Shown: positions 230-38,758 of the stretch, piece by piece | How the letters are laid out: each line of letters starts with the position of its first letter | Position numbering within the stretch: position 1 is the stretch's first letter | Assembly (NCBI GenBank): GCA_026004195.1 | Contig: BPIQ01000002.1 | Location: 930,585 to 994,584, forward strand | DNA length: 64,000 nt | Reading direction: 5' to 3' | Source: Candidatus Binatia bacterium | GTDB taxonomy: Bacteria; Desulfobacterota; Binatia; HRBIN30; BPIQ01 | Translations under genes and position numbers: made by a program | Notes under the pieces: model-generated | Told to the model about the DNA's origin: nothing | Databases searched by the model: none | The model's input: only the letters and a program-made list of their open reading frames with translations

Positions 230-412
230 GAGGACTTCGAACTCCGCTGCTGGGCCAGGTCTCCTGACTCCCGGCGACCTACTCGCGGCGCCTTCCCATC
301 CCGGAGGACAGTGGCGTTCTGCCGCTTTCGTTCCGGTTACAGTGGCGGGGGCCGTGCCGGCTTCTCACCGGCTTCCCTTGACCCACCAGCTATGTTCTGG
401 TCGGCGGGCTAG
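230..412 (-). promoter_or_regulatory. Cobalamin (adenosylcobalamin) riboswitch
   Basis: Read on the minus strand, the segment contains the B12-box core AGTCAGGAGACCTGGC (around 253-268). Upstream of it are the conserved GAAGCCGGTGAGAAGCCGGC and CCCGCCACTGTAACCGG blocks of the class. The order and spacing match the cobalamin riboswitch family. The regulated gene must lie to the left of the window, because the element reads leftwards and no minus-strand gene follows inside the window. Known targets of this class are B12 or cobalt transporters and B12-independent isozymes; which one applies here cannot be seen. Confidence 0.93.
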
Positions 413-8695: not shown

Positions 8696-8721
8696 GGACG
8701 CGACGGAGCGCGTCCCTCCGG
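8696..8721 (+). repeat. Hairpin repeat, type A, single copy
   Basis: The element reads GGACGCG, loop ACGGAG, CGCGTCC, then CTCCGG. It is identical to the copies in the arrays at 17.6, 18.8 and 27.4 kb. It sits 25 bp from the type C copy (reverse orientation) that the insertion sequence has split. Confidence 0.9.
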
Positions 8722-8745: not shown

Positions 8746-8757
8746 CGGAGGGCCACG
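8746..8757 (-). repeat. Hairpin repeat, type C, left fragment cut by IS
   Basis: CGGAGGGCCACG here is the first half of a type C hairpin. The rest resumes at 10402-10419 beyond the insertion sequence. The shared CCACG (8753-8757 and 10402-10406) is the target-site duplication. Confidence 0.82.
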
Positions 8758-8776
8758 GGGTTGTGAACAAATTCGG
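8758..8776 (+). repeat. Left terminal inverted repeat of the IS
   Basis: GGGTTGTGAACAAATTCGG; pairs with 10383-10401 with three mismatches (positions 1, 4 and 11). Confidence 0.85.
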
Positions 8777-8934
8777 GTCTTGGCGAAAGGCCAGCGAAGC
8801 AGGAGCTCGCCGGGGTCGGTCGGAGGAAAAAAGAGAAGGCTGGCGGCCTCCGGGGTTCCCACCGAGCCCCGGCTTGCCACCTCCTTCCGGTCTTTTCGTC
8901 TTCGGTTTCGGCCCTCTCTCTCGCCTACGACGCC

Positions 8935-10306
8935 TTAGCTTCCGCCCGCGGCCGCAAGAAGGGCGAACCACCGCAGCAGGTTGTAGGTGATCACGTTCAG
9001 CAACACGATGCACCGCACCTTCGTTCTCCCCCGTAAGACGATCTTCCCGAGCGTCCTCCAGCGCTTGAGGTCCGCGTGCACCCGCTCGCTCACCCGAGCC
9101 CGCACGCCGTAGATCGCCCGCCCCTCCGGTGTCCTCATCCTCTCTTTGAGCTGCCGCACCGCTTCGCTGTCCCGGGGCCGCACCTCGTAGGGATCGGGCT
9201 TCCCCTTCCTTTTCGGTAAAGCCCCGTAAAGCTCCACACCCCGCGCACTGAGCTCCTCCACGTTCTCCACGCTCGTGTAGCCCGTGTCCACCACATACTG
9301 CTCCGGAAGCCTCTCGAACCTCCGCTCAAGCTGCTCCAGCATCGGCACCGCCTCGGCAAAATCCGTCCTCCCCTGACTCACCTCCACCCCCACCACCACC
9401 TCGCTCTCCGCGTCCGTCGCCAGCTGGACATTGTAGCCCGGAAGATACGCCCCGCCCGTCTGCCGCATCACGCGCGCCTCGGGGTCCGTCGTCGAGCTGC
9501 GTGGCTCCCCCGAGGGCTCCTTCGCCCCCTTCTTGTAACCCTCGCGCTCCCTCTCCAAAGCCCCGAGCTCCTCGAGCGCCCTCGTAAGCCTCCTCTCCCT
9601 CTCCTCAAGCGCTCGCCTCTGCGCAGCCTGCTTCCTCCTCGAGAGGCTCCGCCGTGCCGGTGCCTCGAGCTCCCCACGCAGCGCCTCGATCTGTCTGCGT
9701 ACCTCCGCCCGCAGCTCCTCCACCTTCTTTCTCCTCCGAAACGACCGGTCCCCGGCCGAAGCTCGCACCCGCGTCCCGTCCTGCGCCACCCGCCGAAGCC
9801 GCACCAGCCCCTCGGCCATCATCACCGCCAACACCTGCGTGAAAAGCTCCTCGAGCGCCTCCGCGTTCTCGCTCCGAAACGTGCTCAGCGTGTGGTAATT
9901 CACCGGTACCCCCGCCCCGAAGCCACCGGTAGGCCACGTGCTGCTCCGTCAACCTCTCGAGCTCCCTCGCACTGCCTACCCCCTCCGCCGTCGCATAGAG
10001 CCACAGCGCCAAAAGCACCTGCGGATCCGTCGCATCCCGCCCCGCCCAGCTCCCCCGCGCCTTGATCCTCTCGTAAAAGGCCGAAAGGTTCAGCTTCTTC
10101 ACGACCGCCAACACACTGCGGGCCCGGTGCGTCTGAGGCAGCTCGCCGTCCAGATCCACCACCTCCCACCGAAGCTGGCTCCGCTCCGCTCTCACCACCC
10201 GCGGTGCCGCCTTCGCTGCCTCCGCCCGCCGCCGCTCCCGCGCCTCCGCGAGCCTCCGCTTCCTCTCCTCCGCACTCTCCCCGCCCAGAAGCTCCACCTG
10301 CTCCAT
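8935..10306 (-). pseudogene. IS1182-family transposase, frameshifted
   Basis: The N-terminal part (10306 down to about 9914) has the DUF772-type region, with LNLSAFYERIKA, TDPQVLLALWLYA and a block ending HVAYRWLRGG. The C-terminal part (9903 down to 8935) continues NYHTLSTFRSEN, then a charged coiled-coil insert, the DDE catalytic region (YNVQLATDAES, VVDTGYTSVEN) and a YNLLRW tail. The junction is a run of five C at 9909-9913 with one base too many. The ATG at 10306 has GGAGG seven bases upstream. Dropping one base gives a protein of about 455 residues. The element is probably immobile unless this is a sequencing error. Confidence 0.87.
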
Positions 10307-10382
10307 CCCTTCACCTCCCCACCGTAGCTTCCCCTCCCTACCACACTCCGCCCCCAGAGCCGAATCCCTCCAGGGTAAATTT

Positions 10383-10401
10383 CCGAATTTTTTCACATCC
10401 T
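10383..10401 (-). repeat. Right terminal inverted repeat of the IS
   Basis: Reads AGGATGTGAAAAAATTCGG on the minus strand, matching the left end at 16 of 19 positions. Confidence 0.85.
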
Positions 10402-10419
10402 CCACGCTCTGTCGTGGCC
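10402..10419 (-). repeat. Hairpin repeat, type C, right fragment cut by IS
   Basis: CCACGCTCTGTCGTGGCC completes the type C hairpin begun at 8746. The first five bases are the target-site duplication. Confidence 0.8.
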
Positions 10420-10492
10420 GTGGTCACGTTTGGTACCGCCCTGCGTGGCCGAACACGAACGACCGTATCCCCGCCACCCCCCGGACGCGACC

Positions 10493-10518
10493 GAGCGCGT
10501 CCCTCCGGACGAGGGTGT
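10493..10518 (+). repeat. Hairpin repeat, type A, single copy
   Basis: GGACGCG, loop ACCGAG (one loop change from the usual ACGGAG), CGCGTCC, CTCCGG. It lies 58 bp before the HIT gene and is the right-hand neighbour of the IS-split copy. Confidence 0.88.
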
Positions 10519-17645: not shown

Positions 17646-18066
17646 GGACGCGACGGAGCGCGTCCCTCCGGGGGATGCATCCGGGACGCGACGGCGCCAT
17701 GCGGCGTTTCGAACGTGCGAATCGGAGGGCCACGCTCTGTCGTGGCCGCGTTCGCGGAACACACCGCCGATCACTCGGATGCAACCGGAGGGACCCGCTC
17801 TGTCGGGTCCATGTTCGTGCGCGGTACCGACACCCCCCGCCCGGACGCGACGGAGCGCGTCCCTCCGGATGGGTGCATCCGGGACGCGACGGCGCCATGC
17901 GGCGTTTCGAACGTGCGAATCGGAGGGCCACGCTCTGTCGTGGCCCTGTTCCCGGAACACACCGCCGATCACTCGGATGCAACCGGAGGGACCCGCTCTG
18001 TCGGGTCCATGTTCGTGCGCGGTACCGACACCTCCCGCCCGGACGCGAAGGAGCGCGTCCCTCCGG
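17646..18066. repeat. Hairpin-repeat array 1 (two ~198-bp units plus one hairpin)
   Basis: Type A hairpins lie at 17646, 17843 and 18041 on the plus strand. Type C hairpins at 17723 and 17921 and type B at 17786 and 17984 are in the opposite orientation. The A-C-B unit repeats at 197-198 bp and its spacer is nearly identical between copies. Stems are GGACGCG/CGCGTCC (A), GGACCCG/CGGGTCC (B) and GGCCACG/CGTGGCC (C); loops are ACGGAG or ACAGAG, with AAGGAG in the third A copy. No gene lies in 17538-18105. Confidence 0.93.
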
Positions 18067-18105
18067 GGGATGCATCCGGAGTGGGAAGTCGACCCGGGCT
18101 GGCAC

Positions 18106-18576
18106 CTAACAGGGACCGCGGATTTCGTCCCGCTCTTCGGGGTCGACGTCGACGACGGGCCCGCCCGGACCCACGACAAAAACGGTCATTTGGACCTCGC
18201 CCCTCTCGATCCGTCGCTCGATCCACCGCCAGACGGCACGCTTTACGAGCCTGCGCGTGGGCGGCATCAGGCAGAGAAAACCCACGGCGTCCGTGATCAC
18301 CCCCGGGGTCACGAGAAGCGCGCCGGCAACGAGGATCAGAACGCCGTCGAAGATAGCGTCGCCCGGAAGTTTGCCGGCTTGTGTTTCCTCCTGGAACCTG
18401 CGCAAAACGCCCAGGCCTTGTCGGCGGGCCAGGGAAGCACCGAGGATTCCCGTGCCGACGACCAGAAAAACCGTCTCCCAGGTGCCGATGCGCCTCCCGA
18501 TCTCGATGAGGAGGGCAAGTTCGACCACCGGAAGAAACACGAAGAGGAGAAGAAGTCGGCCCACGGCTTCCACCAT
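18106..18576 (-). CDS. fxsA: FxsA family membrane protein
   Basis: The 156-residue product matches the FxsA family: an N-terminal membrane segment LLLLFVFLPVVELALLIEIG, then TWETVFLVVGTGILGASLARRQG, GDAIFDGVLILVAGALLVTPG and TDAVGFLCLMPPTR, then a charged tail. FxsA is an inner-membrane protein associated with altered phage exclusion in E. coli; its biochemical role is unknown. The ATG at 18576 begins the family homology; the open frame runs further upstream only because the flanking repeat array lacks stops. The gene sits between arrays 1 and 2. Confidence 0.85.
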   Translation of the reverse strand: MVEAVGRLLLLFVFLPVVELALLIEIGRRIGTWETVFLVVGTGILGASLARRQGLGVLRRFQEETQAGKLPGDAIFDGVLILVAGALLVTPGVITDAVGFLCLMPPTRRLVKRAVWRWIERRIERGEVQMTVFVVGPGGPVVDVDPEERDEIRGPC

Positions 18577-18694
18577 AGCAGCCCTGGGAGCCGCGTAAAC
18601 CCGCGGGTCCCTCGTGGCGGGTAACCCCGCAACCCCTCGCACGCCACCCACGGGATGCGGCGTACGCCCACGCCGCCCGTCCCCCGGACGCGAT

Positions 18695-19420
18695 CGGAGA
18701 GCCACGCTCTGTCGTGGCCGTTTCAAATGACACCAGCGGTCATCGAAGACGTCCGACCGTCGCGTCCCCCATCCCCGCCCCCCGGACGCGACGGAGCGCG
18801 TCCCTCCGGCATGTGCGCCCGGGACACGAGACGTCGCACGTCCTTGCAAACGCGACCCGACACGTTCATACCCCCGCCCGCTCACCGCCCGGACGCGATC
18901 GGAGGGCCACGCTCTGTCGTGGCCGTGTTCGCATGTGCCGGGGTCTGTCATTGCGGATGCCGCCGCGTCGATCCCCACCTCCCCCGGACGCGACGGAGCG
19001 CGTCCCTCCGGCACGTGCGCCCGGGACACGAGACGTCGCACGTCCTTGCAAACGCGACCCGACACGTTCATACCCCCGCCCGCTCACCGCCCGGACGCGA
19101 TCGGAGGGCCACGCTCTGTCGTGGCCGTTTCAAATGACACCAGCGGTCATCGAAGACGTCCGACCGCCACGTCCCCCATCCCCGCCCCCCGGACGCGACG
19201 GAGCGCGTCCCTCCGGCACGTGCGCCCGGGACACGAGACGTCGCACGTCCTTGCAAACGCGACCCGACACGTTCATACCCCCGCCGCTCACCGCCCGGAC
19301 GCGATCGGAGGGCCACGCTCTGTCGTGGCCGTTTCAAATGACACCAGCGGTCATCGAAGACGTCCGACCGTCGCGTCCCCCATCCCCACCCCCCGGACGC
19401 GACGGAGCGCGTCCCTCCGG
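18695..19420. repeat. Hairpin-repeat array 2 (tandem ~204-bp units)
   Basis: Type A hairpins at 18784, 18984, 19191 and 19395 (plus) alternate with type C hairpins at 18695 (variant), 18900, 19102 and 19306 (reverse). Unit lengths are 200, 207 and 204 bp. The spacers between hairpins are themselves nearly identical, for example a block containing ACGTCGCACGTCCTTGC and another with CAAATGACACCAGCGGTC. It is therefore a tandem duplication of a whole unit, not independent hairpin insertions. Open frames across it encode only repeat-derived peptides. No gene lies between 18577 and 19514. Confidence 0.93.
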
Positions 19421-27351: not shown

Positions 27352-27767
27352 GGACGCGACGGAGCGCGTCCCTCCGGCCGGCCGTGTTCGCCGATGCCGT
27401 GGACGTCGATCCCCGGATGCGAAGGGTCACGTCGATTACTCCCGCCCCCCCGGACGCGACGGAGCGCGTCCCTCCGGCTGGCCGTGTTCGCCAATGGCGG
27501 GAACGTCGATCCCCGCATGCGAAGGGTCACGTCGATTACCCCGCCCCCCCGGACGCGACGGAGCGCGTCCCTCCGGCCGGCCGTGTTCGCCGATGCCGTG
27601 GACGCCGATCCCCGGATGCGAAGGGTCGTCGTTCTTCCGCCCCCCGGACGCGACGGAGCGCGTCCGTCCGGCCGGCCGTGTTCGCCGATGCCGTGGACGC
27701 CGATCCCCGGATGCGAAAAGTCGTCGTTCTTCCGCCCCCCCGGACGCGACGGAGCGCGTCCCTCCGG
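27352..27767 (+). repeat. Hairpin-repeat array 3 (five type A hairpins, ~97-bp units)
   Basis: Five type A hairpins, all plus strand, start at 27352, 27452, 27551, 27646 and 27742, spaced 100, 99, 95 and 96 bp. The spacer contains GCCGTGTTCGCCGATGCCG and a GGATGCGAAGGGTC-like block in each unit. The fourth copy has one change (CGTCCGTCCGG). There are no type B or C hairpins here. It fills the interval between the small helical gene and the CrtC-like gene (27347-27790), which holds no gene. Confidence 0.94.
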
Positions 27768-38370: not shown

Positions 38371-38758
38371 CCGGAGGGACGCGCTCCGTCGCGTCCAGGG
38401 GCGGGGGAATCGCCATGGTCGTTTCGGGTCGAGGATCGGGGTTCGTGGCATCCGCGAACGCGGGCATCCGGAGGGACGCGCTCCGTCGCGTCCGGGGGGC
38501 GGCGGGCCACGCATGAACACGGACCCGACAGAGCGGGTCCCTCCGATCGAACGTGGCCATCCGGAGGGACGCGCTCCGTCGCGTCCGGGGGGGCGGCGGC
38601 CGTACCGATCGGACGTCGGCAACGACCGCCGGTACGTTTCCCGACAATGGCCACGACAGAGCGTGGCCCTCCGACGCGTGCGTCCGTCGCGGACCTCGGG
38701 TCACCGGGGGTTCACGGCAACCGCAAACCCGGCCGGAGGGACGCGCTCCGTCGCGTCC
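38371..38758. repeat. Hairpin-repeat array 4 (mixed types, mainly reverse)
   Basis: Type A hairpins on the minus strand start at 38371, 38468, 38561 and 38733. A type B copy at 38521-38545 and a type C copy at 38649-38673 are on the plus strand, opposite to the A copies. This keeps the same A-versus-B/C opposition as arrays 1 and 2. The first three A copies are 93-97 bp apart. No gene lies in 38233-38767. Confidence 0.92.

What the first reader, a model, noticed from the sequence alone, without database searches (positions are those of the whole stretch)
17646..19420. Family of short hairpins with compensatory stem changes and conserved loop
Three stem types share the same loop and 3' flank. 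A: GGACGCG/CGCGTCC. B: GGACCCG/CGGGTCC. C: GGCCACG/CGTGGCC. Loop ACGGAG or ACAGAG; all end CTCCG(G). I count about 28 copies in this window, in four arrays plus single sites (8696, 8746+10402, 10493). Paired changes on both arms with the loop held constant argue for selection on a folded RNA or on single-stranded DNA rather than on sequence. A and C/B copies face opposite ways. The function could be REP/RAYT-like mobility, transcript stabilisation or protein binding. Peptides read through these repeats (RDGARPSG-like) are common in annotated GC-rich genomes as far as I recall, but I cannot check that.
Basis: partly seen in the sequence, partly recalled or inferred. Interest (0 to 1): 0.75.

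Follow-up and report, generated by a model that had tools for sequence, protein, structure and literature searches.

The report
GGAG-tagged REP repeats without a transposase
The hairpins belong to a family of short mobile-type bacterial repeats (REP elements) present about 680 times in this genome; a related genome carries the enzyme that normally spreads such repeats right between similar hairpins, but no such enzyme was detected in this genome.

Summary
In detail: 28 copies in the window, plus one split by an insertion sequence. The genome has about 679 (reversed-pattern control 0). Each reads CGGAG tag, 7-bp stem, CTCCGT/CTCTGT loop. In 1.12 Mb sampled, 373 copies in 74 clusters never break the rule that A faces opposite to B/C, as in BIMEs of repetitive extragenic palindromes (REPs). 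Pairing is conserved between families instead: 11 of 25 distinct matches on metagenomic contigs pair at all four unconstrained positions (shuffles: mean 0.6, maximum 5). In a genome of the same order a REP-associated tyrosine transposase (RAYT) gene lies between such GGAG hairpins; two related RAYT loci have imperfect ones. No RAYT was detected here, though gaps exist. An IS1182-like element sits at one hairpin position in 10 of 10 full copies. Best reading: a greatly expanded, GGAG-tagged REP/BIME family spread by a RAYT now lost or unassembled. New variant of a known kind.

The parts
17646..18065 (.). BIME-like array of 7 copies: A- 17646, C+ 17723, B+ 17786, A- 17843, C+ 17921, B+ 17984, A- 18041 (A tag on the - strand, B/C tag on the + strand); 197-198 bp period
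18695..19419 (.). BIME-like array of 8 copies: C+ 18695, A- 18784, C+ 18900, A- 18986, C+ 19102, A- 19191, C+ 19306, A- 19395; 202-205 bp period
27352..27766 (-). Array of 5 A copies (27352, 27452, 27551, 27646, 27742); the four spacers keep GGCCGTGTTC, the 3' end and flank of a C copy, so the array looks like a deletion derivative of A-C units
   Evidence: derivation is inference
38372..38758 (.). Array of 6 copies: A+ 38372, A+ 38469, B- 38521, A+ 38562, C- 38649, A+ 38734
8696..8720 (-). Single A copy
8746..8757 (+). 5' part (tag and 5' arm) of a C copy interrupted by the IS1182-like element
8758..10402 (-). IS1182-like insertion sequence (transposase frames on the - strand, 8935-9903 and the frame 9605-10405); one of 10 full-length copies in the genome, all 10 inserted at the end of the 5' arm of a REP hairpin in one orientation. 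Ends set by reading the junctions.
10403..10419 (+). 3' part (repeated 4-bp target CACG, loop, 3' arm) of the interrupted C copy
10483..10507 (-). Single A copy with one loop change

Best explanation
These are REP elements arranged in BIMEs. Each unit is a guide-like tag (C)GGAG directly followed by a 7-bp hairpin with a CTCYGT loop. Three subtypes occur, A in one orientation against B and C in the other, comparable to the y, z1 and z2 REPs of E. coli BIMEs (PMC8266576, passage; that y and z face opposite ways is recalled). Shown: anatomy, copy number, orientation rule, array structure, between-family covariation, and GGAG hairpins on both sides of a RAYT gene in the same order. Inferred: a RAYT of that clade recognised tag and hairpin as single-stranded DNA and copied A-C doublets to new intergenic sites; tandem amplification then lengthened arrays. 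After copying, single copies mutate without visible constraint. In this genome the RAYT has been lost or lies in an assembly gap. An IS1182-like element uses the hairpins as landing sites.
For: About 679 copies, control 0. 0 of 373 copies break the orientation rule (74 clusters, 63 of them with two or more copies); 33 of 56 clusters of three or more begin and end with A against 17.8 expected, maximum 28 in 2000 shuffles. 5 of 181 copies lie inside called genes. In G007, same order, a 171-aa RAYT (NF047646 90.4 bits, cut-off 80; PDB 4er8 TnpArep E 1.1e-6) has GGAG-GGCCGCG-CTCCCG hairpins on both sides, 3 of the genome's 18 copies within 110 bp of the gene, and four inverted pairs among the 18. 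Two further RAYT loci (G001, G002; 46-47% identity) have imperfect GGAG...[CT]TCC hairpins beside the gene. Stems covary across lineages. Insertion of IS elements into REPs is a known habit (PMC1525189, passages).
Against: No RAYT detected in this genome: PF01797 0 at E<=0.001, NF047646 0 at E<=10, the G007 RAYT 0 at E<=0.01 with 11 candidates scored, although most copies are intact (270 of 373 perfect). The tag is GGAG, not GT(A/G)G. In G324, G518, G277, G411 and G467, which carry similar hairpins or single matches, none of the 28 Y1 loci fetched (of 43 matches) had a GGAG hairpin within about 1.5 kb, nor had the second Y1 locus of G007. The imperfect hairpins of G001 and G002 rest on a loose scan with 3 hits in its reversed control against 14 hits in all. 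In the nine-sequence covariation test two of five measures were reached by 169 and 188 of 500 shuffles. No empty site or movement was observed.
Confidence: 0.85

Rival explanations
1. The hairpins are kept as RNA elements (terminators, mRNA stabilisers or processing sites), and their number reflects host function rather than mobility.
For: Nearly all are intergenic (5 of 181 inside called genes), and REPs in other bacteria have been proposed to act this way (PMC3733652, abstract and passages).
Against: No strand preference relative to codirectional genes (9 versus 8); gaps with copies are 17 codirectional, 8 divergent, 7 convergent against 155, 85, 35 of all gaps of 60 bp or more. Stem changes are mostly uncompensated and as frequent as loop changes. 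No Rfam match at the repeats at gathering threshold. Copies are very uneven along the genome.
Confidence: 0.06
2. The repeats were amplified chiefly by local tandem duplication and recombination, without transposition.
For: 81 of 130 spacers match a spacer of the same array region; arrays have regular periods.
Against: Copies occur on all six contigs; 85 of 130 spacers also match a spacer elsewhere; single and doublet clusters exist (18 of 74; some may be cut by stretch ends); the same design sits beside a RAYT gene in a relative.
Confidence: 0.05
3. The hairpins are pieces or products of the IS1182-like element, which spread them.
For: All 10 full copies of the element lie in hairpins.
Against: About 679 hairpins against 10 full elements; the element interrupts the hairpin and in 8 of 10 copies repeats 4 bp of it, so it behaves as an invader.
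Confidence: 0.02

Closest known systems
GTAG-tagged REPs / BIMEs with RAYT (TnpAREP), e.g. E. coli, Pseudomonas, Stenotrophomonas
   Same: Short tag directly 5' of a hairpin, hundreds of mostly intergenic copies, subtypes with complementary stem changes, clusters, RAYT flanked by this type of repeat in a relative, target of insertion sequences.
   Different: Tag GGAG instead of GT(A/G)G; 6-nt loop CTCYGT that is complementary to the tag; no RAYT detected in this genome. Caution: Pseudomonas REPs read GT(A/G)GGAG at the hairpin foot (PMC3686654, passages), so GGAG may be a reduced form of that foot.
CGTC-tagged REPs
   Same: Tagged palindromes at high copy that apparently lack a dedicated transposase (PMC3733652, abstract and passages).
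   Different: Tag, stem length and loop differ; here a RAYT-linked relative exists.
Class 3 TnpAY1-associated hairpins (foot CnGA, about 600 copies in Solibacter usitatus; PMC6006769, sections 13 and 27 read)
   Same: Non-GTAG foot, high copy number; CGGA fits CnGA if the tag is read one base earlier.
   Different: The linked RAYT here scores over the NF047646 cut-off; the class 3 sequences themselves were not compared.
REP-targeting insertion sequences (IS1397, IS621, ISPpu9, ISRm22)
   Same: All or many copies inserted in REPs.
   Different: This one is IS1182-like; the five families named in the passage read of PMC1525189 are IS3, IS110, IS4, IS256 and IS5.

Membership tests
REP element | Short palindrome of about 20-40 bp in high copy, extragenic | tested here: met
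   About 679 copies; 5 of 181 inside called genes
REP element | Conserved unpaired tag at the hairpin foot | tested here: met
   CGGAG in all three types; the tag changes more often than stem or loop (0.028 against 0.0165 per site)
GTAG superfamily of REPs | Tag fits GTAG (or GYAG, GYRG, GTRG, GTMG) | tested here: not met
   Tag is GGAG; variants as in the section read
BIME | REPs of different subtypes in opposite orientation with recurrent spacers | tested here: met
   0 of 373 violations; 85 of 130 spacers match a spacer elsewhere
RAYT-dependent REP (REPtron) | RAYT gene in the same genome flanked by two inverted copies | tested here: not met
   No RAYT or Y1 match in G000; assembly gaps possible
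RAYT-dependent REP (REPtron) | RAYT flanked by this type of REP in a relative | tested here: met
   G007, perfect hairpins on both sides; G001 both sides and G002 downstream with imperfect stems
RAYT-dependent REP (REPtron) | RAYT binds and cleaves the single-stranded hairpin | not testable with these tools
   needs biochemistry
REPIN | Inverted REP doublet as the moving unit | tested here: inconclusive
   Of 299 neighbour pairs AC is 80 and CA 78, but AA is 54; no empty sites available
IS1182 family | Transposase over the family cut-off | tested here: inconclusive
   NF033551 254.3 bits on one frame and 75.3 on the other, cut-off 270 for the whole protein

The most novel reading that the evidence does not exclude
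GGAG-tagged hairpins with a tag-complementary CTCC loop form a separate, widespread REP superfamily in which tag and loop, reverse complements of each other, act as guide and target while the stem turns over freely; and in this genome it multiplied to about 680 copies and remains fresh with no RAYT at all, moved by an unrecognised enzyme or kept uniform by gene conversion.
Probability: 0.15. Interest if true: 0.75.

Novelty: new variant of a known kind. Interest (0 to 1): 0.4.

Why it matters
It extends REP/RAYT biology to a tag outside the two named superfamilies and to an unnamed lineage, gives a case of a large REP population without a detectable RAYT, and separates two claims that are easily merged: structure is conserved between REP families but not maintained at each copy. 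The tag-loop complementarity gives a concrete test of how RAYTs choose cleavage sites. The same hairpins are a fixed target for an insertion sequence of a family not among the REP-targeting families named in the passages read.

Tried and rejected
Pseudoknot between tag and loop: the tag abuts the stem with no spacer, so both pairings cannot easily form together in one hairpin (inference); tag-loop pairing could be an alternative fold or act between copies. DNA folding gives the 7-bp hairpin for B and C (z -2.6 and -3.0) and an 8-bp reading for G007 (z -3.0); for A with its GG flank the predicted minimum is another fold that pairs CCGGA with TCCGG (z -1.3), which is against a simple hairpin for A.

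Own taxonomy: the one genome-contig scan used a transporter with many transferred relatives and named no close organism; its best hit (RBC016) has 0 copies. From recall it could be Binatota; untested.

Distribution: within the class 3 of 148 genomes match (own; G007 with 2; G004 with 1). In the phylum sample 13 of 395 match, own included; besides the own genome only G324, G518 and G277 have more than one or two hits. Metagenomic contigs with paired hairpins showed no credible RAYT; one signature match in L306 looks spurious.

RAYT remnants: tblastn of four RAYTs against the 1.12 Mb sample gave nothing below E 0.08, and an HUH...Y-NP signature gave 0 hits there, while 7 of 7 control loci were found. 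One search had used two queries in the wrong strand and is superseded.

Literature: searches listed no paper on a GGAG-tagged REP. As a word start GGAG occurs 0 times in PMC3733652, PMC8266576, PMC3116915, PMC6006769 and PMC12306157; inside words it occurs 18 times in PMC3686654, the sequences shown having it as part of GT(A/G)GGAG. That last result, found while checking, lowers the novelty of the tag; I cut interest from 0.42 to 0.40. Only the held open library was searched and figures are not held. Of the papers cited I saw passages, plus section 5 of PMC3733652 and sections 13 and 27 of PMC6006769.

Full report
What is there. The window holds 28 intact or nearly intact hairpins with three stems and one C copy split by an insertion sequence. 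Written on the strand that gives one common form, A is CGGAG-GGACGCG-CTCCGT-CGCGTCC, B is CGGAG-GGACCCG-CTCTGT-CGGGTCC and C is CGGAG-GGCCACG-CTCTGT-CGTGGCC. In the own genome (3.63 Mb, 6 contigs, 98.94% complete) the degenerate pattern matches 339 + 340 times at up to 2 mismatches and the reversed control 0 times. Among the 148 genomes returned for the class only the own one has the repeat in number; G007 has 2 and G004 1 match to a looser-stem pattern.

Organisation. I read 54 stretches plus the window, 1,117,898 bases, and found 373 copies within 4 mismatches, 270 of them perfect, in 74 clusters, 63 with two or more copies. None of the 373 breaks the rule that A faces one way and B/C the other within a cluster (the rule is empty for the 11 singles). 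Of 56 clusters with three or more copies, 33 begin and end with A; shuffling the types inside clusters gives 17.8 on average and at most 28 in 2000 trials. Singles carry more changes (mean 1.09, n = 11) than members of clusters of three or more (0.45, n = 348). In the first 36 stretches plus window, A is followed by a run of G and B/C mostly by GTGTTC, and 85 of 130 spacers match a spacer elsewhere, 81 one in the same array region, so the repeated unit is larger than the hairpin. Copies are very uneven along the genome: many 20-kb stretches have none, one has 39. Of 181 copies in that first set, 5 lie in called genes, and gaps with copies show no marked gene-orientation preference (genes were called by a simple codon model).

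Is the fold under selection? Within types, per-site change is 0.0165 in stems and 0.0165 in loops over 373 copies, and 0.028 in the tag; of 83 changed stem pairs 67 are changed on one side and broken, 13 are G-T, 2 are re-paired and 1 is changed on both sides but broken. Over 77 distinct sequences the rates are 0.067 in stem and 0.052 in loop. So resident copies decay without visible constraint. Between families the result is the opposite. Broader evidence comes from IMG/VR contigs: a pattern fixing tag, loop and three stem pairs but leaving four pairs free hit 30 contigs with 25 distinct sequences; 11 pair at all four free positions, none at three, 14 at two or fewer; shuffling the 3' arms gives 0.6 on average and at most 5 in 5000. 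A narrower scan gave 5 of 5 fully paired, all contained in the wider set. The fold is therefore a property needed for copying or recognition, not one kept at each site.

The enzyme. Y1 transposases (PF01797) were not found in this genome, whereas 37 of the 58 genomes of the relatives set, own included, have them; the RAYT model NF047646 gives nothing up to E 10. In G007, a genome of the same order, a 171-aa protein with PDHVH and YVRWNPV motifs (their roles are recalled) matches NF047646 at 90.4 bits against a cut-off of 80, PF01797 at 24.0 against 23, and the solved TnpArep 4er8 at E 1.1e-6. It has GGAG-GGCCGCG-CTCCCG-CGCGGCC hairpins on both sides, three within 110 bp of the gene, out of 18 in 6.2 Mb; four pairs among the 18 are inverted and 76-108 bp apart. 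A search of 148 genomes of the class with this RAYT finds matches in 46 and none in the own genome. Of the three next homologues (46-48%), G001 has GGAG...TTCC hairpins with two mismatches on both sides, and one of the two in G002 has such hairpins with one and two mismatches downstream; a further GGAG...CTCC sequence at its start codon, seen by eye, has three mismatches and did not pass the scan. The second G002 gene was not fetched. In all, 5 of 64 Y1 loci scanned had hits (two are one place; the fifth is L271), 14 hits against 3 in the reversed control. Some more distant Y1 genes of the class have GTAG or GTGG hairpins near them, for example L264, L265, L266, L275 and L283; that scan had no control. 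Thus a RAYT of this order goes with GGAG hairpins of the same design, and the present genome holds the hairpins without a detected enzyme. Against a general link, 28 Y1 loci of five more distant genomes with such hairpins or single matches had none nearby. A copy lies within about 1 kb of a contig end at 3 of 12 ends (C4 end 468 bp, C5 start 1026 bp, C6 end 32 bp), so a RAYT in an assembly gap is possible. PMC2817692 (passages) reports about ten times more REPs in strains with the cognate RAYT, and PMC8049555 (passages) at least 69 REPINs per E. coli genome, RAYT or not, so an orphaned population is plausible.

The insertion sequence. A 1.64-kb IS1182-like element (NF033551, 254 bits on one of two frames, cut-off 270 for the whole protein) has 10 full copies at 99-100% identity and one fragment. 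All 10 are in a REP hairpin, at the end of the 5' arm next to the loop, in the same orientation; 8 of 10 have the same 4 bp (CGCG, CACG or CCCG) on both sides, L194 joins a C half to an A half, as recombination between copies would give, and L195 differs by one base. REP-targeting insertion sequences are known for five other families (PMC1525189, passages).

Tag and loop. In all types and in the 11 paired metagenomic forms tag GGAG and loop CTC[CT] are reverse complements apart from a C-to-T change. This is direct from the sequence, but as both were fixed in the searches I cannot claim covariation, and chance is not excluded. IS200/IS605 enzymes use a tetranucleotide 5' of the hairpin as a guide for the cleavage site, and TnpAREP of E. 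coli cleaves at CT (PMC8266576, passages); a guide role of GGAG toward CTCC is my inference. In Pseudomonas the REP foot reads GT(A/G)GGAG (PMC3686654, passages), so GGAG may descend from such a foot.

Verdict. A GGAG-tagged REP/BIME family, strongly expanded, RAYT-type mobility inferred from relatives, RAYT not found here. It works like a REP and meets the REP and BIME tests; it fails the GTAG tag test and the same-genome RAYT test.

Noticed in passing
window 8758-10402 and loci L186-L195: IS1182-like element, 10 of 10 full copies inserted at one position and orientation in REP hairpins, 8 of 10 with identical 4-bp target repeats.
   Followed up: yes
window 236-401 (-): Cobalamin riboswitch, 97 bits, the only Rfam match in the window at gathering threshold.
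   Followed up: no
genome C1, C2, C3, C4, C5: REP copies are highly clumped: none in many sampled 20-kb stretches, 39 in one. Cause unknown.
   Followed up: partly
L303, L295, L297, L314, L293 (IMG/VR contigs; L295, L297 and L314 are one contig): Several GGAG hairpins, in L303 arrays of two stem types in one orientation (GGCAACG and GGATGAC): a similar repeat system in another source.
   Followed up: partly
G324, G518, G277: Distant families of the same phylum carry the same hairpin design (10, 6 and 4 hits); no fetched Y1 locus of theirs has one nearby.
   Followed up: partly
L271 1446, 2250, 2292: Another GGAG-tagged hairpin (TGCGGGCT stem) on both sides of a more distant Y1 gene of the class.
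   Followed up: no
L263 1414-1450: A GGAG...CTCC sequence overlaps the start of the G002 RAYT frame and is read as EGEAPAEP; a G007 copy reads as LEGRAPARP.
   Followed up: no
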